This document shows, piece after piece, positions 33,044-44,677 of a DNA stretch of 44,694 bases; positions within the stretch are counted from its first letter, which is position 1; each line of letters opens with the position of its first letter. Below the pieces are notes generated by a model. It had not been told where the DNA came from and did not search any database. It worked only from the letters and a program-made list of their open reading frames with translations. The stretch is taken from the NCBI GenBank assembly GCA_024693225.1, contig JAILLI010000030.1, forward strand, positions 1-44,694, given 5' to 3'. This DNA comes from Lachnospiraceae bacterium (GTDB lineage Bacteria; Bacillota; Clostridia; Lachnospirales; Lachnospiraceae). The translations under genes were made by a program, and so were the position numbers.

Positions 33044-34978
33044 TCATGCGGTCAGTTTTTCCCTTATGAACCTGATATAGGCCGATTTGGTCAGGGGTCT
33101 GGAATAATAGAAGCCCTGTATCTCATCGGCTCCCATCTGTATGAAGCTGTCCACCATCTCTTCGGTCTCTATTCCTTCGACCACTACTTTGAGCTTCATG
33201 TTTTTGAGCATCATGATCAGGTTCCTGATGATCACATGATGTCCCCCGCTCTCCTCCATCAGCACGAAGGCACGGTCAAGCTTTACTATGTTAAGAGGCA
33301 GGGATGCTATCCTCATCAGGTTCGAATAACCGGTCCCGAAATCATCAAGAGAGAATGAAAAACCGTGATCGGCAAGGGTGCGGATATTTCCGTAAAGCTT
33401 TGACTGGGAATAGGCACTGGCCGTCTCCGTTATCTCAAGGTTGATCTTTGACGGATCCACTTCGTATTTTCCCGACAGACCTATGATCTCATCAGCCAGG
33501 TCGTTACGAAGGCACTGCATGGCCGAAAGGTTTATCTCTATGTAATCAACACCTAAAGGGGCAAAATCGGGAGATGCTATGAACTTGATGACTTCCTCAA
33601 GGACAAAGCTTCCTATGGCGTGTATGGCCCCGCTCTTTTCCGCGATGGGGATGAAAAGAGCCGGTGATATATAGCCGTACTTGGGATCACGAAGGCGCAC
33701 AAGAGCCTCGGCCGAGGTGTATTTCCCGGTGACCGTATCATATATGGGCTGATAGAAGACCGAGAAATAGTGATTAGCCAGCGCCCTGTCAATGATGGCG
33801 GACATATCCTTTTTCATCAGAAATTCCTTTGTCCGGGTAATACTTGAAGCAGAAAGGGATCTTCCGTTAGAAACAGCCTGGTCCATATCCGATATGAGCA
33901 TAAACAGAGATTCCACATCCGAAATGTCATCGGGGCAGCTTGCCAGGCAGGTCCTGATGTCAAGTTCAAAGTCGGATATCTCCATCTTTACATTCCTGTG
34001 TATGGATGTGCCGATCTCATCCACTATGGATGAGGCCATGGCGGAGAGCCTGCGTGACAGCTCAATTGCGAACTTGCCGTCACCTATGTAATAACACATA
34101 AACGGGGCATGATGCCTTCGCATTATGCGCAGTATCTCATCTGATACAGGTCTCATCATCTTAAGCACCTGATCATATCCCACAAGCCTCAAGGCATACT
34201 TGTAGTTGACTATGTTGAGGAGTATGATCTGCATCTTCTTGCCGCTCTTGAAATTGGTGGTCATATCCTCGGCAAAGACCTTATAGGTGTGCATGCCGGT
34301 GGCAAAATCGATGGCATCTTCCGTTCTCCTGCTGATAAGGACCAGCATGAGTATGCAGAGGGTTATGGCCATGCACAGAACATGCTGGGAAGGATTGATA
34401 AGATTTACGGCAAGACCCGTAACACATATGTAAACGGGAGCAAGAAATACCCTGTACCTTTTTGTGTCTATGGGCTTTACGAACCTTCCCAGGAACCATA
34501 CCGTGAGCAGATTGTACAGGATATAAAGCATCTGGCCGACATAATAGCCCCAATGCGGCTCAAGATCCCTTCCCGGCATGACCGAAAAGGCTGCGGGATA
34601 AAAGAAGTTGACTGTCAGGATGACAATATATGCAACGGAAGGTGCGAACCAGAACACGACTCTGTGCAGAAATCCGCGAAGGACATGCCACAGATCCAGG
34701 TCTGCGATTATATAGAGAAGATACAGGGGCGGGATGATCGAAAAGAAAAGGTAATATGCCGAATTTACCATAAAGAACCGCCTGTCCGATCCAATATCGG
34801 GCGCAGCGAACCTGACCCTCGTCGCATCACAGACGGATGCGGCAACGGTAACGGCAATGATCAGAGCCAGTATGGCTCCCCTGTAACTGCCCTTTATCCC
34901 CGAACGGAAATAATAGTAGGCAATGATCATGAGCAGTATGAAAGCACAGTAATCATATGCGACAATATGCGCTGCCAT
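33044..34978 (-). CDS. Membrane EAL-domain c-di-GMP phosphodiesterase with degenerate GGDEF
   Basis: A 644-residue protein whose first 215 residues form about seven membrane helices, beginning with the YDYCAF phrase shared with the next gene. A GGDEF-fold region at about 220-375 has no GGDEF signature. The EAL domain from about 395 is intact: SAEALVRL, INLSAMQC, LEITETA, LDDFGTGYS, KLDRAFV, VEGIET and IQGFYYSRPL hold the metal and general-base residues. It should hydrolyse c-di-GMP to pGpG under control of a membrane-side signal. It follows its paralogue by 7 nt and ends the lipoprotein-XpaC-TelA operon. No clear terminator follows. Confidence 0.88.
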   Translation of the reverse strand: MAAHIVAYDYCAFILLMIIAYYYFRSGIKGSYRGAILALIIAVTVAASVCDATRVRFAAPDIGSDRRFFMVNSAYYLFFSIIPPLYLLYIIADLDLWHVLRGFLHRVVFWFAPSVAYIVILTVNFFYPAAFSVMPGRDLEPHWGYYVGQMLYILYNLLTVWFLGRFVKPIDTKRYRVFLAPVYICVTGLAVNLINPSQHVLCMAITLCILMLVLISRRTEDAIDFATGMHTYKVFAEDMTTNFKSGKKMQIILLNIVNYKYALRLVGYDQVLKMMRPVSDEILRIMRRHHAPFMCYYIGDGKFAIELSRRLSAMASSIVDEIGTSIHRNVKMEISDFELDIRTCLASCPDDISDVESLFMLISDMDQAVSNGRSLSASSITRTKEFLMKKDMSAIIDRALANHYFSVFYQPIYDTVTGKYTSAEALVRLRDPKYGYISPALFIPIAEKSGAIHAIGSFVLEEVIKFIASPDFAPLGVDYIEINLSAMQCLRNDLADEIIGLSGKYEVDPSKINLEITETASAYSQSKLYGNIRTLADHGFSFSLDDFGTGYSNLMRIASLPLNIVKLDRAFVLMEESGGHHVIIRNLIMMLKNMKLKVVVEGIETEEMVDSFIQMGADEIQGFYYSRPLTKSAYIRFIREKLTA

Positions 34979-34985
34979 AATACCT

Positions 34986-36908
34986 CTATCCCATCAGTAT
35001 AAATCTGATGAACTCCTTCTTCTCCACGGGCCTGCAGAACCTGTATCCCTGAAGATAGTTGCAATTGAGGGCACAAAGACGGCTCTCCATCTCTTCGTCC
35101 TCTACTCCCACAGCCACCGAATCGATGCCCAGATCTTCTATCATGCGGAGACTTCCTTCGAAGACGGCTGTATTATCATCCTTCAGACCTTCCCTTACAA
35201 AAGTCCGGTCCAGTTTGATGCCGGAAAGGGGCATCCTGGCTATCCTCTCCACCTCAAATATGCCGGCACCGAAATCATCCATGTATATGCCGAAGCCCAC
35301 CTGGGACAGGGCTTCTATGTTGTCATGCATTTTTTCAAATATTTCCGGGCTGTCCACATCCGTGATATTAAAGCATATGTTCTTGGGCTGTACATTATGG
35401 CTCTTTACGGCGGACAGAAGCACCGAAAGAAATTCACTCCACATACACTGGACCGGAGACAGGTTGATCTCTATATGCTCAAGGCCCAAAAGCAGAAAGT
35501 CCGGCTGGGAGATAAAACTGCATACCTCCTCTATCACAAAGGTAGTTATGGCATGTATGGAGTTGATCTTTTCGGCCTCTCCTATAAGCAGATCGGGCGG
35601 GATCTGGCCGTAATCCGGATCGTTCAGTCTCAAAAAGGCCTCAGCCCTTACATACCTTTTATCCTTTACGGAATATATGGGCTGGTAGTGGAGGGCAAAA
35701 AGCTTCTTCGTAAAAGCCCTGTCTATTACGGCCCCTATATCCCGTCTCAGCTCAAAGCGCTTCTTGTCAAACAGTTTTTCGGCATACCGCAGTTCGCCCG
35801 TATAGGTTTCCATATCAAGGCGGCTGTCAAAGGAGAAAAGGAAGCGGGGGTCATCTATATCATCGGGGCAGCTGACAAAGCACACGTTGTTCATGGCCTT
35901 GACCTGCATATCTCCGACCGATACATCCCTGTTCACCACTTCGTTAAATCCGTGCGCGATGGCGAGCACGGTATCCTCGTACCTCTCATCCGCTATGACG
36001 GCAAACCTTCCTCCGCCCAGATAATACAGATCCACGTCCACCTTTGATGCCGATGCCCATAATTCAAGCCTTGCCGCAAGTGTCGCGATGATATCCTGGA
36101 CCGTAAAGTAACCGAGCATCTCAATAAGGGCATTGTAATTGGTCATCACGGACAGGGTCACCCCGATGGGAGTATTCAGCTCCTTGTATTTTATCACGTC
36201 ATTCACATAGGCGTTCATGGACAACAGTCCTGTCCCCCCGTGAAGCCTCTCTTCGGGTGACTGTATACCCAGCACCGTTATCAGGAAGGCCGCGGCAAGA
36301 AAGAACATATAGGGATAATATGAATAATACACAAGCTGCAGTATCCCTGTGATGAACATTATGCCGAGCACAACAGCCACACTGAACATCCTGCGTACCG
36401 AAAAGAGTCTCCGGTATCTGATGACGCCGGAAAGTCCCAGCAAAAGGTAGGCAAAGGACATGACAAAAAGTGCAAAGAGAAGGGGGCCTCTCCGGTATGC
36501 CCCGTCCCCGTCTATGTAAAATATGATACGGGCAAAAGGATTGACCAGCATTATCACAGTCATGATCACGACGGGTATGTTGAAGATATAGCCTGCAGCC
36601 CTCCTGTTACGGATCTTGTGCCATATCCCTATCATGGCAAAGAGATATCCGCAGAACATCACCGGTATCATGCTGATGGCCCATAATCTCACTGTATTGG
36701 CTATGACCTTCCAGATAATGTAACGTGCCCCGGACCCATCCACCACAAGGGCACATATATCCGCTACGGTCGCCATTATTATGGTTCCGATAAGACCAAG
36801 AGCCCATCTGTTGAGACGGCCCCTTGTCATCTTTCGGATAAAGATTGCTACGGTTACCAGCACCTCCACAACGAGAGCGCAGTAATCAAAATAAATAAAA
36901 CTAGTCAA
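34986..36908 (-). CDS. Membrane EAL paralogue with lost catalytic residues
   Basis: The 640 residues repeat the architecture of the neighbouring 644-residue protein: seven-helix N-terminus, degenerate GGDEF, EAL fold. Several catalytic positions are changed. EAL reads EAF. The EITE motif reads NITD, so its first metal-binding glutamate is lost. The VEGIE motif reads VGVED, replacing another glutamate with Val. The DDFG and LDRTF segments remain. It is therefore probably a c-di-GMP-binding or purely regulatory protein, perhaps a partner of the active paralogue. The start is a TTG (36906-36908) overlapping the telA stop by 8 nt. Spacing and fold speak against decay. Confidence 0.82.
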   Translation of the reverse strand: MTSFIYFDYCALVVEVLVTVAIFIRKMTRGRLNRWALGLIGTIIMATVADICALVVDGSGARYIIWKVIANTVRLWAISMIPVMFCGYLFAMIGIWHKIRNRRAAGYIFNIPVVIMTVIMLVNPFARIIFYIDGDGAYRRGPLLFALFVMSFAYLLLGLSGVIRYRRLFSVRRMFSVAVVLGIMFITGILQLVYYSYYPYMFFLAAAFLITVLGIQSPEERLHGGTGLLSMNAYVNDVIKYKELNTPIGVTLSVMTNYNALIEMLGYFTVQDIIATLAARLELWASASKVDVDLYYLGGGRFAVIADERYEDTVLAIAHGFNEVVNRDVSVGDMQVKAMNNVCFVSCPDDIDDPRFLFSFDSRLDMETYTGELRYAEKLFDKKRFELRRDIGAVIDRAFTKKLFALHYQPIYSVKDKRYVRAEAFLRLNDPDYGQIPPDLLIGEAEKINSIHAITTFVIEEVCSFISQPDFLLLGLEHIEINLSPVQCMWSEFLSVLLSAVKSHNVQPKNICFNITDVDSPEIFEKMHDNIEALSQVGFGIYMDDFGAGIFEVERIARMPLSGIKLDRTFVREGLKDDNTAVFEGSLRMIEDLGIDSVAVGVEDEEMESRLCALNCNYLQGYRFCRPVEKKEFIRFILMG

Positions 36909-38085
36909 CGTTCAGGCTTTCCTTGCTGATCTGCAAAATCTTATCTTTCATCTCATTCTCGATGCGGACAAGCTCTGTTTCGGCCGCAGCCCTCTTGGCT
37001 CTGCCGTCTGCCTGTATCTGCATGACTTCATCAAAAGTCTCGATGAGCATCTGGTTGGTCGTTGTGAGGGTCTCTATATCCACTATTCCTCTCTCACTTT
37101 CCTTGGCACTCTCTATGGTCGCCGTCTTGAGGGCTTCCGCATTCTTCTTCAGAAGCTCATTGGTCATATCGGTGACCTCACGCTGGGCCTTTGCGGCATC
37201 CTGTGAATGATCGAGGCCTATGGCTATGACCATCTGGCTCTTCCACAGAGGTATGGTATTTACCAGGGTAGACTGGATCTTCTCAGCCATTACCGTGTCA
37301 TTACTCTGTATCAGACGTATCTGGGGAGCCATCTGCATGGATATGTTCCTGGTAAGCTCCAGATCATATATCTTCTTCTCAAAGCGCTCGATCATGGAAG
37401 CATAATCCCTGGCCGCCTGGCTGTCCTCCTGAAGCCCTGTCTCCTCAGCCTTTGCAAGTAGCCTTGGAAGCTCGGTCTTCTTCGCTTCTTCAAGCTTCTT
37501 CTTTCCCGCTATTATATAAAGGGACAGCTGCTTGAAATACTCCAGGTTCTCCTCATACATCTTGTCAAGCATTGCTACGTCCTTGAGAAGGACCTGCTGA
37601 TGTCCCTCCATGGCCTTGCATATCTTGTTGACATTGACCTCAGCCTTGTCATACTTGGCCTTCAGTGAGGTGAGCTGATTTGATGTCTTTTTGAAGAGGC
37701 CGAATAAGCCACCCTTCTCTTCCTCAACAGAGAAGCCTTTAAGCTCCGTTACAACACCGGTGAGCATGGACCCTATCTCTCCCATATCCTTGGTCTTGAC
37801 ACTGTTGAGTGCCCCCTCGGAAAACTCGGCAACATTCTTCTGGGCGGCCGCGCCGTAAGTAAGTACCAGCTGTGAATCCCTTATGTCGATCTGGGACATG
37901 AACTTTTCCACCTGCGCCTTGTCTTCAGGCGACAGTTCCTGTTCTTCCGTCGCTACGATCTCAGCCTTGGGGGGCTGTGCAAGAAGATCCGCCAGAGGAT
38001 CTGCGGCCGTCTTTTCGGCGACCGTCGCATCAGCGCCCGCAACGACCTGTCCGTCAACTACCTGTGCATCGATAACTTCACTCAT
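36901..38085 (-). CDS. telA: TelA/YaaN-family protein (tellurite/toxic-anion resistance family)
   Basis: The 394 residues are largely long helices and belong to the TelA (YaaN) family, recognisable by DIRDSQLVLTYGAAAQKNVA near the start and AIGLDHSQDAAKAQREV later. An acidic N-terminal tail precedes the helical body; no membrane segment is seen. The family is named for tellurite resistance but is widespread where no such phenotype exists. It appears regularly with XpaC in membrane stress responses, and its molecular action is not established. I start at ATG 38083-38085 after AGGAGA; six more codons upstream are likely untranslated. It overlaps xpaC by 8 nt, so the two are probably made in fixed ratio. 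Confidence 0.88.
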   Translation of the reverse strand: MSEVIDAQVVDGQVVAGADATVAEKTAADPLADLLAQPPKAEIVATEEQELSPEDKAQVEKFMSQIDIRDSQLVLTYGAAAQKNVAEFSEGALNSVKTKDMGEIGSMLTGVVTELKGFSVEEEKGGLFGLFKKTSNQLTSLKAKYDKAEVNVNKICKAMEGHQQVLLKDVAMLDKMYEENLEYFKQLSLYIIAGKKKLEEAKKTELPRLLAKAEETGLQEDSQAARDYASMIERFEKKIYDLELTRNISMQMAPQIRLIQSNDTVMAEKIQSTLVNTIPLWKSQMVIAIGLDHSQDAAKAQREVTDMTNELLKKNAEALKTATIESAKESERGIVDIETLTTTNQMLIETFDEVMQIQADGRAKRAAAETELVRIENEMKDKILQISKESLNVD

Positions 38086-39412
38086 CTTTATCTCTCCTTT
38101 CATCTCTTACCTCATCCATACCGTTTGTAAGTCCTTTCTGGACAAGTACCGTTTTTAATACCTGGGCATCCGTCGTCACATCAAGCACCGAATCGCGGAA
38201 GAGCTTGTTTAAGAGCTTCCCCAGTGCGGAATTGATGGTATCCAGCGTGTTTTCTATATCTTTCTTTGCAGACAGTATCTCCTTACCCGGTTCGCTCACC
38301 CGGTCATATTCCCTGTAGGCATCAACCAGCTTGACTGCAGTCGGCAGGTAATAGTCCATGAGTTCGTGGATCCTTCCCATCTGTTCCGGATGCTCCCTTA
38401 CCCTGTCAAAGATCTCCTTAAGGAGGCCCTCAAGCCTGTCGAGCTTGGCCGATATCTCAACACCCGGTATATCATTGTTTAAGGACCGGATCCTTAAAAT
38501 GTAATCCTTTCCGTCCCTTATCATCTGGGACAGCTCGGCTGATTCTTCGAGTGAAAGGGTCGGGAATTCCTGTTCATCCTCTGACCTTGCCGTCGTATCG
38601 ATGACATTTGCGCTCCCCCGTCCGGTCTCAAGTTCTATATAATGTCCGAACACTTCATCCGTAAGGATAAGTGTCCTGTTGTCCCGGTCAAGGTGTCCCT
38701 GGGGAAAATATCCCAGCTTTATGAGCTTTTTCAGCTCCCTTACGACCTTTCTCTCCGACTTGCCCAGTGACAGGGCCAGGGTCGTAACATCGATATACTG
38801 CCTTTTGCCTATGATCTGAACATATCTCCTTGAAAGGGCTGTCATCTTGGACTGCCCTATCCCTTTGCCTGTAAGAAATCCGAAAAAGGCAATGGCAAGG
38901 CCCGCAAAGGCAACTCCCACAGGTGATATGGTCCCCAGCAGGATGGCTGCAAGCCCCTTCGTTATGGTAACGGCTGCTGTGATCCCAAGGCCTATGCCTC
39001 CCGTGATCGACAGAGCGGTCGATGATCCCGCGGCTGCGTTCCTGTAAGGATACGGCAGGCTGACTGCCTCCGGGATGGTCTTTCTGGCAAGTCTCTTTGC
39101 CTTCCTTTCCTCTTCCCGCTGCCTCCTCTCCTGCTCCATCCTCTCCCGGACGATCTGCCTTTCGGCATGAAGCTGTCTCTGTGCTTTGGCTGTCCGGGTG
39201 TTGCCGGAAAAATCCTCTTTTCGTTTTGACAGGGGGACTGCGTTAGATGACGGTGCCATGGCACTGTTCATGCGGTCTCCCACATCATCGAGGAAATTGT
39301 CCACACTCTTTACTATGACATCATTAAGAACAGTCCAGTCGTTATTTACTATCCCCTCGGTAAAGGCTTTTTCAAAATCCTTCCCGATCCCGTTTCCTTT
39401 CTTTTCGGACAT
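38078..39412 (-). CDS. xpaC: XpaC-family membrane protein, TelA partner
   Basis: The 444 residues start with a charged region rich in Arg, Glu and Gln (about 55-105). Two close membrane helices (about 130-182, TGGIGLGITAAVTITKG and SPVGVAFAGLAIAFFGF) follow. A winged-helix-like stretch comes next (QYIDVTTLALSLGKSERKVV), then a long helical C-terminus. This is the XpaC layout (the '5-bromo-4-chloroindolyl phosphate hydrolysis' family; the name reflects an old plate phenotype, and no enzyme is proven). XpaC and TelA genes are adjacent in many Firmicutes. The gene lies 3 nt after the lipoprotein gene. The family and pairing are well supported, the function is not. Confidence 0.8.
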   Translation of the reverse strand: MSEKKGNGIGKDFEKAFTEGIVNNDWTVLNDVIVKSVDNFLDDVGDRMNSAMAPSSNAVPLSKRKEDFSGNTRTAKAQRQLHAERQIVRERMEQERRQREEERKAKRLARKTIPEAVSLPYPYRNAAAGSSTALSITGGIGLGITAAVTITKGLAAILLGTISPVGVAFAGLAIAFFGFLTGKGIGQSKMTALSRRYVQIIGKRQYIDVTTLALSLGKSERKVVRELKKLIKLGYFPQGHLDRDNRTLILTDEVFGHYIELETGRGSANVIDTTARSEDEQEFPTLSLEESAELSQMIRDGKDYILRIRSLNNDIPGVEISAKLDRLEGLLKEIFDRVREHPEQMGRIHELMDYYLPTAVKLVDAYREYDRVSEPGKEILSAKKDIENTLDTINSALGKLLNKLFRDSVLDVTTDAQVLKTVLVQKGLTNGMDEVRDERRDKDE

Positions 39413-39415
39413 TGT

Positions 39416-40882
39416 CTATTTATCCTTCCGTCCGTGATAAAGCCTGGGCTTAAAATCATCGGTTTCTTCTTCGTCTATCACATAGGTAGCGGATACATAT
39501 CTGATATCGGACAAGGCCGTATCATATGCCACAAGCCTTCCGGCCCTTCCCTCATCAGGATCTCCTTCCACTGTAAAGAAGACATCCTGCGAGCCGTCAT
39601 CCTTTACGATAAATCCCTTGTATGTGATCAGGCCCGGATCCCCGCCCGGGTCGTCCTTCATGTAAAGATCCTTCACTTCCTCTGCTATCAGGTCCGTATC
39701 TTTTCCCGCAAGCTCCTTAAGGTCACTCTCCTCAAGGGGCCTTTTCTTGCTCTTGTTAAATGCATAACAGCGTATATCGGGATCCGTCCCGTCAGCCGGA
39801 CATACCTTAAAAGTTACGGCAACCTGGACATTCTCAGAAGTCGTAAGAGGGTATGACATGATCTCGACCCATTGTCCGTCTTGCCGCGGGGCATCCGCTA
39901 ATCCGACTATATCCTCTTCTATGGCCTCGTTTAAAGCCTTTATCCCCGGTTCATTCTCATCAAAAGATGAAAACTTCAGAATCTCCACTATATTACCATA
40001 GCCCTCATCTTCCTCCTCAAGATCCTTCCAGCCGTATTGGCGGCGGAAACACGCAAGGAAGGGGACCCCGTTCAGCTTATCCTCCGTCAGCCGGTCAGCG
40101 GCTCTTGCCCCTGTTATCTCATAGTCAAAGAGGGCACCTGTTGTGGTGTCCCTGGTATTGGCCCGGAGTGTATATATAAAACTTACGCTCTCTTCACCTG
40201 TTGAGGCATCCTCAAGAGCCACCTCCATCTCAAGCGTACTGTCGGGATATTTGTTAACAGTCCTTATCTCGGGAAGGAAGGACCCGGGGTCCTCATCCTT
40301 GAATCTGTACTTAAGATCCGTACTGACGCTGACATGATCCCCGTCCTCCTCACCGTATGCCGCTATTTCCGATACGGTCGGAAGCTCCTTTAGCTTGCCG
40401 AACATGGAATATCCTATCTTCGTTATCGTATCCGGATCGGCATCAAGTGTATCACCGACCCTTTCAAAACCAAAACTGTCCTCACCGTACCTGCAGGCAA
40501 AGGCATGGATGCAGTGCCAGATAAAGGCGGCATCATCTTCGGTATACCCCTTCCCCATCTCGACACTTGCGATATTAATGGCATCACAAAGACCAGCCAC
40601 GGACTTAAGATCGTCTGACAGTCTCCTTACATCGATCTCTTTCGGCTCATCACCACTTTCCGTGGCAGATACATCCTTATCCCCAGCCCCGTCTTTTTTC
40701 TTATCTGTCTTTTTTGCCATATCCTTGCGCGGATCGGTGATACCGGTCAGGATATCCCCGTCCTTCATGGCATCGACCTGACCGAAAGGGGTCTTCTTTA
40801 CAGGTTCTTCCTTACCGCAGGAACATATAAGAACCGGCAGGATCATTATGATGACTGGTATAGCGTATACGAACTTCTTCAT
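39416..40882 (-). CDS. Lipoprotein of unknown function heading the XpaC-TelA operon
   Basis: The 488 residues begin with a lysine pair, a hydrophobic stretch and the lipobox LICSC, so cysteine 23 or so should be lipidated. A Lys/Asp-rich linker to about 90 leads into a mixed alpha/beta domain. It has several Asp/Glu-rich loops and an EIDVRRLSDDLKSVAGLCDA segment. I recognise no family. Its place at the head of a five-gene operon with XpaC, TelA and two EAL proteins suggests an extracellular component of the same membrane process. No Shine-Dalgarno sequence precedes the ATG. AT-rich -10-like boxes lie only 8-18 nt upstream. Confidence 0.75.
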   Translation of the reverse strand: MKKFVYAIPVIIMILPVLICSCGKEEPVKKTPFGQVDAMKDGDILTGITDPRKDMAKKTDKKKDGAGDKDVSATESGDEPKEIDVRRLSDDLKSVAGLCDAINIASVEMGKGYTEDDAAFIWHCIHAFACRYGEDSFGFERVGDTLDADPDTITKIGYSMFGKLKELPTVSEIAAYGEEDGDHVSVSTDLKYRFKDEDPGSFLPEIRTVNKYPDSTLEMEVALEDASTGEESVSFIYTLRANTRDTTTGALFDYEITGARAADRLTEDKLNGVPFLACFRRQYGWKDLEEEDEGYGNIVEILKFSSFDENEPGIKALNEAIEEDIVGLADAPRQDGQWVEIMSYPLTTSENVQVAVTFKVCPADGTDPDIRCYAFNKSKKRPLEESDLKELAGKDTDLIAEEVKDLYMKDDPGGDPGLITYKGFIVKDDGSQDVFFTVEGDPDEGRAGRLVAYDTALSDIRYVSATYVIDEEETDDFKPRLYHGRKDK

Positions 40883-40973: not shown

Positions 40974-43541
40974 TTACATGAACTTGACGAATTCCTCTTC
41001 GGGTACGGGCTTGGAATAATAATAGCCCTGGATCACGCTGCACCCCATTCCCGTCAGCAGATCCGCCTGATCTTTTGTCTCAACACCCTCTGCTATTATA
41101 TCAAAACCCAGTTCTTTTGTCATATTGACCACTGAAGATATGATCACATTACCTCTTCCGAGAGTATCCTCTCCCCGCAGAAATCCCATATCAAGCTTGA
41201 CTATGTCTATGGGAGCACTCTTTAAGAGATTGAGCGAAGAGTATCCGCTTCCGAAATCATCCATATTGACCTTGAAGCCCATCTGCCTTATGGACTGTAC
41301 CCGCCGGAATATCTCCTCCACATTTCCCGCATATGCGCTCTCGGTTATCTCGAACTGTATATGATCACAGGCATCCGGGAAAGCTGCGGCAACTTCTCCT
41401 ATATAGTCGGCAATGCCCTCATACATAAGGCTTATCCTTGAGATATTGACGGAAACGGGAACCGCCTTTCCCGTACTTTTTATCCAGGAGGACACTTTCT
41501 CAAAGGAAGACTTCCATACATACCTGTCAAGTTCGGTTATATATCCGTTCTTTTCAAAGACCGGTATGAATACCCCGGGACTTATCATGGTCCCATCGGA
41601 CTTTATCCATCTTGAAAGTGCTTCCGCCCCGACCAGTTCGCCTGTCACATGATCGTATTTGGGCTGGAAATAGAGTACGAACTCTCCCCTTTCCATCGCA
41701 GGCTTCATCTTCTGTGTTATCTCCGCCTCCAAAGACATGTTCCTGGACATCTCTTCCGTATAGAGCACATATGTGTTCCTGGACCTGTCCTTTGAGGTCC
41801 TGTAGGCATATGTCGCATACAGCATGGCCCTTGAAACATTGGTGGACAGTTTCTTTATCTCAAACATACCGAACTTCATGGTAAGAGGAAAATCTATATT
41901 GAGATGGGCTACGGATATCTGTGTATCGGCCTTGAACTTTTGAAGATTCTCCCGGGTATTCTCAAAGATGCAGCCAAATGCCCCCGCTCCCAGTCTGCCG
42001 CATATTCCTCTCCTGTCGGCAAATTCCTCCATGATCTTTGCAATATACTGGATCACTATATCGCCGCCCTTATTGCTGTACAGATCGTTTATGCCTCCGA
42101 GCCCGTTTATGTCTCCGACCACCAGGAGGAAGTCCTTGTCCGGCTCATCGGCTATAAAATGACCGGCGGCCTTGATGAAACCGATCTGGTTATAGAGGCC
42201 GGTAAGGGGATCCAGACCCAGCTGGACCTTGAGCTCGTCATTGAGATAATGTACACAGTCTTCTATGCGCGAGTATCCGTTTGCAACGGCGCAGGCCATC
42301 TCATGACAGGTTACGTATCCGCAGGCCTGACAGTTGAGTTCTTTCTTGACCTTTGTGGTCTTGTGCATGGCTTCAAATATCTCTTCAACAACATTTTCCG
42401 GAACGGAACACTTCTCGTGATAATTCTCCTCCCCCTGCCACTCGAAATCCATCATGTTTATGAAGGAGTACTGTTGGCACAGACTTTCGTACCTGTCATT
42501 GGGCGACATGTCTCCCTTATCTTCCGGGTCCATGGAATCTGTGAGTTTCTTTTCGTATATCGATATGCTCTTCTCATAATCAAGGGACGAACTGTCTAAG
42601 GCCGGTCCTCCCATACAGCCTCCGGCGCACAGATCGACCGTGACCATGGTCGGATGATGCTCACTCTTTAAAAATTCTCTCGATCCGATCAGTTCGTTGT
42701 ATCCGTCTTTGAGCCCTCTGTTAGCCTTAAAGATATATCCGGACGGGAAATACCTTGCCACGGCTACAGAAAATGCATCATTCTCTGCAGCGACAGTACC
42801 CATGCCGTCAATCTCCATATCAAATCCGGCACTGTATCCCGAAATATCCTTATCTGCCAGATACTCGAAAAGCGTCTTGAACCCGATCAGGTAATTGATG
42901 TTCCTTCCGGTATTGTATGAACTGAACTCATCGTAGATGGCTGTACATGGGGACAGAAGGGCAAACCTTCCCTTTACGTTCATGTATTTGCGGTAATATA
43001 TGGCGGCACATACAGCCGGGAGCTGTACGGGGATGAAGGAGTCGAGTGCCTCCGGAGCATAACGGGATACGTAGTTGGAAAAGCCCGGACAAGTGTGAGC
43101 GAAAAACCTGTCGCATTTCCCCCTCTCATCCATATGATCCCGAAGATATCTGGCATGACAGTATATGCTGATATTCCCTCCCACGGTACCATCGTATATG
43201 CCCTTTATGCCAAGGGATTTAAGATATCCGAAAACCTTCGAGGCTGTCTCGGCCCCGTATGCGACCACAAATGTCGGATCCGCGATCAGCGACACCTCGT
43301 TCCCCCTCTTCAGATCGGTAAGAAGGTCCTCAAGGCTGTCCCTGTACATTCTGGCATCATGAACACACTCATTGATACAGGACCCGCAGTGGATACAGTT
43401 CCTGTCCGAAACATCTATGCTGATCTTACCGTTCTCGGTAGCGGTAACATTGGCTCCTACGGCAGGGCATACATGGACACAGTGGTTACAGGCCACACAC
43501 TTGTCATTGGTATATATCATCCCGTCATTGTATCTTCTCAT
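40974..43541 (-). CDS. Ferredoxin / [FeFe]-hydrogenase-like H-cluster / GGDEF-EAL fusion protein
   Basis: The 855 residues contain, in order: two [4Fe-4S] motifs (C15/18/21/25 and C49/52/55/59); a hydrogenase large-subunit-like domain (about 75-330) that keeps the four H-cluster cysteines (C151 in HTCPGF, C199 in SPCTA, C305 and C309 in LCAGGCMGG); a CX2CX4C...C Fe-S domain (C404/407/412/429); a GGDEF fold whose signature is GAGAF (518-522); and an EAL domain from about 605 with AEALSRW, FEITESA, MDDFGSGYS, AEGVET and IQGYYYSKP. It has no membrane segment. The proton-shuttle cysteine before C151 is Thr, and the lysine after C199 is Ile. A sensing rather than H2-metabolising role is therefore likely, with output through c-di-GMP hydrolysis. 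It starts after AGGTGA, 11 nt from the FIST gene. Confidence 0.88.
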   Translation of the reverse strand: MRRYNDGMIYTNDKCVACNHCVHVCPAVGANVTATENGKISIDVSDRNCIHCGSCINECVHDARMYRDSLEDLLTDLKRGNEVSLIADPTFVVAYGAETASKVFGYLKSLGIKGIYDGTVGGNISIYCHARYLRDHMDERGKCDRFFAHTCPGFSNYVSRYAPEALDSFIPVQLPAVCAAIYYRKYMNVKGRFALLSPCTAIYDEFSSYNTGRNINYLIGFKTLFEYLADKDISGYSAGFDMEIDGMGTVAAENDAFSVAVARYFPSGYIFKANRGLKDGYNELIGSREFLKSEHHPTMVTVDLCAGGCMGGPALDSSSLDYEKSISIYEKKLTDSMDPEDKGDMSPNDRYESLCQQYSFINMMDFEWQGEENYHEKCSVPENVVEEIFEAMHKTTKVKKELNCQACGYVTCHEMACAVANGYSRIEDCVHYLNDELKVQLGLDPLTGLYNQIGFIKAAGHFIADEPDKDFLLVVGDINGLGGINDLYSNKGGDIVIQYIAKIMEEFADRRGICGRLGAGAFGCIFENTRENLQKFKADTQISVAHLNIDFPLTMKFGMFEIKKLSTNVSRAMLYATYAYRTSKDRSRNTYVLYTEEMSRNMSLEAEITQKMKPAMERGEFVLYFQPKYDHVTGELVGAEALSRWIKSDGTMISPGVFIPVFEKNGYITELDRYVWKSSFEKVSSWIKSTGKAVPVSVNISRISLMYEGIADYIGEVAAAFPDACDHIQFEITESAYAGNVEEIFRRVQSIRQMGFKVNMDDFGSGYSSLNLLKSAPIDIVKLDMGFLRGEDTLGRGNVIISSVVNMTKELGFDIIAEGVETKDQADLLTGMGCSVIQGYYYSKPVPEEEFVKFM

Positions 43542-43552
43542 ACGATCACCTA

Positions 43553-44677
43553 TTATTCAAAGGACAGTATCAGCATGGTCTGGTTCAGGTGCTTATAGGC
43601 ATACTGCTCTCCGTGTCCCGACAGACCGATGTAAGTTCCGTAGTCAGCTTTGAGCGTTTCGTTATAATCCATCAGCTTTCCCGTCTGGGTAAAGTATCTG
43701 ATCCTCTGGACGCAGTTTATGATCAGAGAAAATGACACCTCGCCGATGGCCTCGTGAACTTTTGCGGCCGTTTCTGCCCATACGGTCTCCGGAGGATCTA
43801 TGGGATCGAGGAGTACCACCCTTGTCTGATTGTATATCTTGGAAAAGAAGCTCAGGCTTCCGTCACTGTACTGTTCACGAAAACCTATTATACCCAGATC
43901 ACCGTTCTCGATCCTTCCGAGCGGATGATAGAAAGAGTTGGCGGAAAGCTCGTCCTCGGGTATCTTCAGCGCACGCGCATATACCCCGGCTGCACTCTTG
44001 TGATCAAACTCATATACCTTTCTCTCATCACAGTCCACATCGGTTGCCGTAAAGAAATGATTGGAAGGTGAAAACATGTTTTCCTTGAAAAGATTGATCC
44101 TTCCCCTCTCGTTATGGACGAACGCGAACACGCTTGCATCCATATAGAGTATCCCGTTAAGGGATACGGCGGACTGTCTGTCGGGATTGGTGGCAAAAGA
44201 GGCACTGCACCCGCATATGGGAACACCGGTGTCGCCTATCACCTGCCGGTATGTATCCATCAGCAGTTCTTCACAGTTGTCTGCAGAGGCGTTAAACTCC
44301 AGACAAACGGTGTTCTCGGCTTCGACCTGCCTGTAGGCTTCGGCTATGGCATCGGCCGACCGTCTCGGATGCCGGCTGACCTCAAAGACCACTCCCGACG
44401 ATACGCTTATACCCTCTGTTATGGCCATGACGCTAAGACCGCTTCTTGTAACACCAAACGGTGAATACGTGACATCGGTCGTCGCTCCTATGACCGTTGC
44501 TTCAGGGAATGAATTGGACAGCATACGGGAATACCATCCGAAATTGGCATTATCCGATGCGAAGATCACGAGCAGGGGTTTAATGCTCTCGCCGTTTTCC
44601 TTAAGCTGTTCCAGGATCTGAGGGTAGGCTCTGGTACCTATCTTCTCATCCACCTGGGCTATATAACATCGTTTCAT
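43553..44677 (-). CDS. FIST-domain sensor protein
   Basis: The 374 residues consist of a FIST N-terminal domain and a FIST C-terminal domain. The N-terminal part (about 30-220) contains the PEATVIGATTDVTYSPFGV turn and GVPICGCSAS. The C-terminal part (about 225-372) contains FYHPLGRIENGDLGIIGF and ends SGHGEQYAYKHLNQT. FIST proteins are cytoplasmic sensors thought to bind small ligands, and some (NosP) bind NO through heme. No kinase or output domain is attached, so the signal is probably passed to the H-cluster/EAL protein encoded 11 nt downstream. The start follows GGGAGGT by 3-4 nt. Only 17 nt of upstream sequence are in the window, so its promoter is not visible. Confidence 0.85.
   Translation of the reverse strand: MKRCYIAQVDEKIGTRAYPQILEQLKENGESIKPLLVIFASDNANFGWYSRMLSNSFPEATVIGATTDVTYSPFGVTRSGLSVMAITEGISVSSGVVFEVSRHPRRSADAIAEAYRQVEAENTVCLEFNASADNCEELLMDTYRQVIGDTGVPICGCSASFATNPDRQSAVSLNGILYMDASVFAFVHNERGRINLFKENMFSPSNHFFTATDVDCDERKVYEFDHKSAAGVYARALKIPEDELSANSFYHPLGRIENGDLGIIGFREQYSDGSLSFFSKIYNQTRVVLLDPIDPPETVWAETAAKVHEAIGEVSFSLIINCVQRIRYFTQTGKLMDYNETLKADYGTYIGLSGHGEQYAYKHLNQTMLILSFE

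What the first reader, a model, noticed from the sequence alone, without database searches (positions are those of the whole stretch)
40974..43541. H-cluster domain wired to a c-di-GMP phosphodiesterase in one polypeptide
One protein joins two ferredoxin clusters, an [FeFe]-hydrogenase-like domain, another Fe-S domain, a dead GGDEF and an intact EAL. The four cysteines that hold the H-cluster are kept (C151, C199, C305, C309). The residues around them needed for fast proton transfer are changed: Thr before C151, Ile after SPCTA, and Asp two before C305. This suggests a redox, H2 or CO sensor that sets c-di-GMP turnover. Known sensory hydrogenases usually carry PAS or kinase/phosphatase outputs; I do not know of a described EAL-output member.
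Basis: partly seen in the sequence, partly recalled or inferred. Interest (0 to 1): 0.82.

Follow-up and report, generated by a model that had tools for sequence, protein, structure and literature searches.

The report
Hydrogenase-derived sensor controlling c-di-GMP breakdown
A bacterium appears to carry a hydrogen-enzyme domain reused as a sensor and fused to an enzyme that destroys the signal molecule c-di-GMP; the sensor seems to have lost the part that would handle hydrogen and travels with a fixed partner gene.

Summary
Window 40974-43541(-) encodes 855 aa: two ferredoxin clusters, an [FeFe]-hydrogenase-like H-domain, a PF04060 Fe-S domain, a degenerate GGDEF and an EAL with intact catalytic residues. 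HydDB's group C lists kinase, chemotaxis and phosphatase links, no EAL. It is not alone: 15 EAL-linked sensors with a FIST gene directly upstream form one clade (99/99). Another 14 EAL-linked sensors have no FIST seen and keep the Lys. The Ile is at CpI Lys358, by recall an anchor of the di-iron subsite. That Lys is kept in 95 of 96 other sensors but 1 of 15 here, while the cubane cysteines stay. Best reading: a [4Fe-4S]-only redox sensor, partnered by FIST, that sets c-di-GMP hydrolysis; probably not an H2 sensor. Maturases occur in the window's genome, yet in only 5 of 16 EAL-carrying genomes searched; that clue is weak, since intact HydA also occurs without them. New variant of a known kind.

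The parts
40974..43541 (-). 855-aa Fer4x2 / H-domain / FeS / GGDEF (degenerate) / EAL protein
43344..43520 (-). two [4Fe-4S] ferredoxin motifs (residues 8-66); the 8 Cys are invariant in the 35 aligned sensors
42603..43277 (-). hydrogenase-like H-domain (residues 89-313)
42936..42938 (-). codon of I202, at the place of CpI Lys358
42252..42338 (-). C-terminal Fe-S domain PF04060 (C404, C407, C412, C429; kept in 15 of 15 of the clade)
41775..42215 (-). GGDEF domain, signature GAGAF (degenerate in 15 of 15 FIST-linked members)
41007..41708 (-). EAL phosphodiesterase domain, nine catalytic positions intact
43542..43552 (-). 11-nt gap between FIST stop and EAL-protein start, holding AGGTGA (likely ribosome-binding site): probably one operon
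   Evidence: sequence printed; the reading is inference
43553..44677 (-). 374-aa FIST protein (FIST_N, FIST_C), conserved partner; NosP-like but far below the NosP cut-off

Best explanation
A one-piece c-di-GMP phosphodiesterase whose input is a former sensory [FeFe]-hydrogenase module. SHOWN by sequence: the domain order; the retained cysteines for two ferredoxin cubanes, the [4Fe-4S] part of the H-cluster and a C-terminal cluster; the EAL residues; the altered di-iron pocket; the FIST gene directly upstream. INFERRED: the protein no longer binds the di-iron subsite. Electrons from the ferredoxin pool, or damage by O2 or NO, change the charge or integrity of the cluster chain. That moves the C-terminal Fe-S domain and, through the degenerate GGDEF, switches EAL activity. 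The probably co-translated FIST protein docks on it as a second, small-ligand or heme sensor, as NosP does on its kinase. Result: c-di-GMP falls or rises with fermentative redox state.
For: Domains and catalytic residues. K358 place I9 M3 R2 K1 in 15 clade members against K in 95 of 96 others (Fisher p 1e-15; the sequences are related, so p is only a guide). Co-changes in the 15: place 88 is D in 14 (A in 93 of 96 others), place 174 is L or V in 12 (S or T in 96 of 96 others), place 303 is D or E in 10. C151, C199 and C309 kept in 15 of 15, C305 in 14 of 15. Graded series: G076 (no FIST seen) and G241 (FIST) keep the six pocket places read, G206 and G290 have R, G249 has M and lost one Cys, the window genus has I or M. 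A FIST gene lies directly upstream on the same strand in all 15; the label was given by FIST, and the tree then shows these 15 as one clade (99/99) with no EAL-linked row without FIST inside it. HydE, HydF and HydG are missing together from 11 of 16 EAL-carrying genomes searched, 6 of them 95-99% complete. Paralogues that were read from genomes of clade members keep the Lys. NosP proteins act as partner sensors in c-di-GMP operons (PMC12570481, passages).
Against: The window's own genome has HydE, HydF and HydG, though this MAG has 6.76% contamination and HydE lies on another contig. Genomes without maturases still hold HydA with intact H-cluster motifs (10 of 10 long HydA read from 8 such genomes), so absence of the genes does not prove absence of the di-iron site; sensors with the Lys also live in genomes without HydG, and G241 has an intact pocket without maturases. 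TmHydS and TamHydS carry changes at the C299 place, and TmHydS at the M497 place, and still bind the full H-cluster. In TamHydS the C-terminal cluster does not change redox state under H2, so a signal path through it is unproven. One clade member (G290) has a decayed EAL. The role of K358 is recalled. No measured redox, Fe content or enzyme activity; FIST ligand unknown.
Confidence: 0.5

Rival explanations
1. One reading: a true H-cluster (cubane plus di-iron) is assembled, and the protein senses H2 or CO and sets c-di-GMP.
For: All four H-cluster cysteines kept; HydE, HydF and HydG in the window's genome; sensory hydrogenases tolerate changes at the C299, M353 and M497 places.
Against: The Lys place is Ile here and non-Lys in 14 of 15 clade members, while 95 of 96 other sensors keep it. 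PMC10055695 says the residues that hold the di-iron site by H-bonds are conserved in sensory types (passages). 11 of the 15 clade members live in genomes where no maturase was found.
Confidence: 0.2
2. The FIST partner is the real sensor, and the Fe-S/H-domain is now only a docking or structural body; the EAL output follows FIST ligand binding.
For: FIST lies beside all 15 clade members and was not seen at the other sensor loci read (flanks there are often only about 1.5 kb). FIST was there before the pocket changed: G241 has FIST and an intact pocket. NosP is a partner sensor of a kinase in c-di-GMP operons.
Against: The Fe-S cysteines read are kept in 15 of 15, but for one in G249, which a mere scaffold would not need. 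The clade's sister EAL0 L010 shows no FIST on the 1.2 kb of contig before it.
Confidence: 0.17
3. O2 or NO damage sensor: the cubane chain is lost on exposure and the EAL is switched, rather than a reversible ferredoxin redox sensor.
For: Four predicted cubanes in an anaerobe's protein (inference); FIST proteins of the NosP type bind heme and sense NO; DosP, named an O2-sensing EAL enzyme in NCBIfam, is among the structural neighbours of the output half, which says nothing about the input.
Against: No direct evidence; the ferredoxin pair is the usual electron entry of hydrogenases (recalled).
Confidence: 0.1

Closest known systems
Sensory [FeFe]-hydrogenases, HydDB group C (C1 kinase, C2 chemotactic, C3 phosphatase)
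   Same: Ferredoxin pair, H-domain, C-terminal FeS domain, replaced C299, signalling output; an MCP-linked and a kinase-linked paralogue in the same genome
   Different: EAL output, FIST partner, di-iron pocket altered incl. the K358 place
TmHydS and TamHydS (groups C and D, characterised)
   Same: Changes at the C299 place in both, at the M497 place in TmHydS; C-terminal FeS domain
   Different: They bind the full H-cluster; here the Lys is gone. TmHydS ends in a PAS domain, TamHydS lacks one
[NiFe] group 2c, diguanylate cyclase-linked (putative)
   Same: Idea of a hydrogenase wired to c-di-GMP
   Different: Different metalloenzyme family; proposed to act through c-di-GMP production, not hydrolysis
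NosP / FIST partner sensors
   Same: FIST_N + FIST_C protein beside a c-di-GMP enzyme
   Different: 89.5 bits against the NosP cut-off of 450; its neighbour is the H-domain EAL protein; no kinase beside it in the window, but the window ends just upstream of FIST; heme binding not tested
DosP and other GGDEF-EAL phosphodiesterases
   Same: GGDEF followed by EAL; nearest folds of the output half
   Different: Fe-S/H-domain input here; heme-PAS in DosP (recalled)
Nar1/NARF-type hydrogenase relatives (recalled, not searched)
   Same: Hydrogenase fold that kept cubane cysteines and lost the di-iron site
   Different: Eukaryotic Fe-S assembly factor, no signalling output

Membership tests
[FeFe]-hydrogenase group C (HydDB) | H-domain profile match | tested here: met
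   PF02906 61.6 bits, cut-off 22.1; but no NCBIfam hydrogenase model shown reached its cut-off
[FeFe]-hydrogenase group C (HydDB) | four cysteines of the [4Fe-4S] half of the H-cluster | tested here: met
   C151, C199, C305, C309
[FeFe]-hydrogenase group C (HydDB) | di-iron pocket residues, CpI K358 place above all | tested here: not met
   I202; K in 95 of 96 other sensors, 1 of 15 in this clade
[FeFe]-hydrogenase group C (HydDB) | ferredoxin pair before and FeS domain after the H-domain | tested here: met
[FeFe]-hydrogenase group C (HydDB) | linked output kinase, MCP or phosphatase | tested here: not met
   EAL output; classes from the HydDB table
[FeFe]-hydrogenase group C (HydDB) | maturases HydE, HydF, HydG in the genome | tested here: inconclusive
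   present in the window's genome, not found in 11 of 16 EAL-carrying genomes; but HydA intact without them
[FeFe]-hydrogenase group C (HydDB) | H2 conversion | not testable with these tools
   needs protein
EAL c-di-GMP phosphodiesterase | EAL profile and catalytic residues | tested here: met
   203.1 bits; 9 of 9 positions
EAL c-di-GMP phosphodiesterase | c-di-GMP hydrolysis | not testable with these tools
   needs protein
GGDEF diguanylate cyclase | GG[DE]EF signature | tested here: not met
   GAGAF
NosP | NCBIfam NosP equivalog score | tested here: not met
   89.5 bits, cut-off 450
NosP | heme binding | not testable with these tools
   needs protein
FIST domain protein | FIST_N and FIST_C profiles; FBXO22-like fold | tested here: met
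   profiles over cut-offs; FBXO22 chains are the best fold matches, TM 0.43-0.52

The most novel reading that the evidence does not exclude
A bacterial hydrogenase caught on its way to becoming a pure iron-sulfur signal relay: a FIST + H-domain-EAL two-gene module in which the FIST partner came first and the di-iron site was then lost step by step (G076, G241, G206/G290, window genus), leaving a ferredoxin-wired redox switch on c-di-GMP. More widely, half of the sensor-bearing genomes in the family sample (33 of 64) show no HydG, so many 'sensory hydrogenases' may not be H2 sensors at all.
Probability: 0.35. Interest if true: 0.75.

Novelty: new variant of a known kind. Interest (0 to 1): 0.6.

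Why it matters
It adds c-di-GMP hydrolysis to the listed outputs of hydrogenase-like sensors and ties it to a conserved FIST partner. It also gives a natural test of what such sensors detect: the clade holds members with and without the di-iron anchor, while the paralogues read from the same genomes keep it. If the pocket-less members still signal, H2 is not their input. In fermenting bacteria that would link ferredoxin redox state to the processes that c-di-GMP governs, such as motility or attachment (recalled).

Tried and rejected
Maturase absence as proof of no di-iron site: rejected as decisive, because G308, G333, G241 and five more genomes lack HydE, HydF and HydG yet carry HydA with intact motifs (10 of 10 proteins), and because sensor presence and HydG are not associated in the family sample (64 sensor-bearing genomes of 299, 31 with HydG; Fisher p 0.48). 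In the family search at most 5 candidates per genome were scored, in the class and phylum searches at most 4, so sensor counts are lower bounds.

One clade of all EAL-linked sensors: rejected (p-AU 0.00012 for 26 rows held together; the group was tested with the tree already seen). One early gain followed by several losses is not excluded by this.

NosP identity of the FIST protein: rejected by score. A solved relative of FIST by sequence: none but a chance hit (E 0.35); by fold FBXO22, with modest TM-scores.

EAL members outside the family: none of the seven new loci of the phylum sample (L178-L184, all MCP by query score), and none of the loci fetched from other families in the class sample, scored with the window's EAL (five of these were also read with Pfam as sigma-54 outputs). 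Rows not fetched were judged by length only, so rare cases may be missed.

Papers: no EAL-linked [FeFe] sensor in the listings (20 of 50 listed; 0; 4; 0; 10 of 45 listed); a library of open papers only. A search on missing maturases gave nothing on the point (3 listed; passages of PMC4478896 were not used for it).

Pocket modelling: the model is good in its domains (mean pLDDT 87.5) but domain placing is unsure (pTM 0.57); no coordinates were seen in the box, so the pocket was judged from alignment alone. The fold search listed only GGDEF-EAL and EAL chains in its first 50 rows, so the H-domain fold was not confirmed by that route.

Full report
Observation. The ORF at 40974-43541 on the minus strand is real: 855 aa, ATG start. 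Pfam finds Fer4_10, Fe_hyd_lg_C (61.6 bits), FeS PF04060, GGDEF and EAL, in that order, over their cut-offs. NCBIfam hydrogenase models match the first part, but those shown stay below their cut-offs (best TIGR04105, 90.2 of 450). The four H-cluster cysteines are there, as are T150, I202 and D303. A direct match to solved iron hydrogenase 1 chains puts I202 at residue 358, a Lys. The GGDEF signature is GAGAF; all nine EAL positions checked are intact.

Own genome. The window's assembly (85.1% complete, 6.76% contaminated) holds four PF02906 proteins: a HydA of the long type (called A3 here from its neighbours and length, not by a classifier), an MCP-linked sensor, a hybrid-kinase-linked sensor and this one, the lowest-scoring. 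It has 16 EAL matches and HydE, HydF, HydG. Two relatives found by name are Lachnospiraceae MAGs RUI156 and RUI387; their contig lengths equal those of contigs of two genomes of the window's genus, so the window very likely comes from that family.

Relatives. Searches of 299 genomes of the family, 37 of the genus, 391 of the class and 398 of the phylum gave the loci studied. In the set of 111 sensors (113 less 2 fragments), 27 are EAL-linked: 15 with a FIST gene directly upstream on the same strand, 12 with none seen; two more of the second kind turned up later. FIST was sought only in the DNA held, often about 1.5 kb on each side. FIST-linked members: 6 of 299 genomes in the family sample (G000, G193, G206, G241, G290, G249) and 11 of 37 in the genus. 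These are lower bounds.

Tree. The 15 FIST-linked members form one clade (99/99 in the careful tree; 99 in the quick tree). The label was given by FIST and the tree was made from the sensor part alone, so the two agree without being forced to. Its sister is EAL0 L010 of G076 (100/94), which keeps the Lys and shows no FIST on the 1.2 kb of contig before it. The other FIST-less EAL members sit among MCP and kinase sensors; holding all EAL rows together is rejected (p-AU 0.00012). The simplest reading is that EAL was joined to such sensors at least twice. Long branches (G249, G290) make details inside the clade unsure.

Pocket. At the K358 place the clade has I in 9, M in 3, R in 2 and K in 1; the 96 other sensors have K in 95, R in 1. 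In the clade, place 88 is D in 14 of 15 (A in 93 of 96 others), place 174 is L or V in 12 of 15 (S or T in 96 of 96 others), place 303 is D or E in 10 of 15. The C299 place is T in 10, N in 2, S in 2, P in 1, but it is also not Cys in 91 of the 96 others. The four H-cluster cysteines stay, but for C305 in G249. G241 has FIST and an unchanged pocket, so FIST came before the pocket loss if the tree is right. PMC10055695 (passages) says that residues which hold the di-iron site by H-bonds are conserved in sensory enzymes; that K358 is one of them is my recall.

Maturases. HydG, HydF and HydE are over their cut-offs in the same 5 of 16 EAL-carrying genomes searched (15 FIST-linked and G076): G000, G193, G323, G328, G076; in none of the other 11. 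Six of the 11 are 95-99% complete (G308, G333, G290, G249, G206, G241). This looked decisive until the HydA proteins were read: 10 of 10 long HydA from 8 genomes without maturases keep the C299, K358 and M497 places and the cysteines. Either another maturation route exists, or the genes are missing from the assemblies, or these HydA do something else. HydG is found in 132 of 299 family genomes and 21 of 37 genus genomes. Counted by hand, HydG is in 4 of the 11 genus genomes with the FIST-linked protein and in 6 of the 11 genus genomes with the FIST-less kind (G311 has both). Of 64 family genomes with a sensor hit down to E 5e-45, 33 have no HydG, 23 of them at least 95% complete. I leave this as unexplained.

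FIST partner. FIST_N and FIST_C match; the model is confident (pLDDT 92.2) and its best solved neighbours are FBXO22, by recall a eukaryotic FIST protein. The NosP score is far below the cut-off. In NosP systems a FIST protein binds a kinase whose regulator handles c-di-GMP (PMC12570481, passages). The 11-nt gap with AGGTGA points to one transcript.

Mechanism, and how sure. Shown: domain order, residues, FIST linkage, clade, pocket change. Inferred: cubane-only H-domain, redox as the signal, FIST docking, EAL switching. Against it: the genome's own maturases, tolerance of sensory enzymes to other pocket changes, a C-terminal cluster that in TamHydS does not respond to H2, and one clade member (G290) whose EAL has decayed.

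Known kinds. HydDB lists C1 kinase, C2 chemotactic, C3 phosphatase for [FeFe], and a diguanylate-cyclase link only for [NiFe] 2c (passages). No EAL-linked [FeFe] sensor appeared in the listings. I call it a new variant of a known kind: it works like a sensory hydrogenase module, but as a member of group C it fails the pocket and output features.

Noticed in passing
L113-L123 (12 loci with L010; also L174, L175): EAL-linked H-domain sensors with no FIST seen and the Lys kept (12 aligned, 2 seen): better candidates for true H2-to-c-di-GMP sensing than the window protein.
   Followed up: partly
G308, G333, G241 and others (L148-L157): Long-type HydA with intact H-cluster motifs in genomes where HydE, HydF and HydG were not found, some 95-99% complete.
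   Followed up: partly
window 33044-36908: Two more EAL proteins in tandem (644 and 640 aa), EAL the only Pfam hit at E 1e-5, beside the TelA gene.
   Followed up: no
window 36901-40882: TelA, XpaC-like (Halogen_Hydrol) and a 488-aa lipoprotein-like gene with no Pfam hit follow the EAL gene; ORFs of like size follow in G193.
   Followed up: no
L094, L099, L127, L131, L138: H-domain sensors with sigma-54 activator output, another output not in the HydDB list.
   Followed up: no
L040 (G290): FIST-linked member with a decayed EAL (most catalytic places changed in the alignment) and a PAS match near its end.
   Followed up: no
L046 (G249): FIST-linked member that has lost the cysteine at C305; its genome's only other PF02906 match is a short piece with stops inside.
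   Followed up: no
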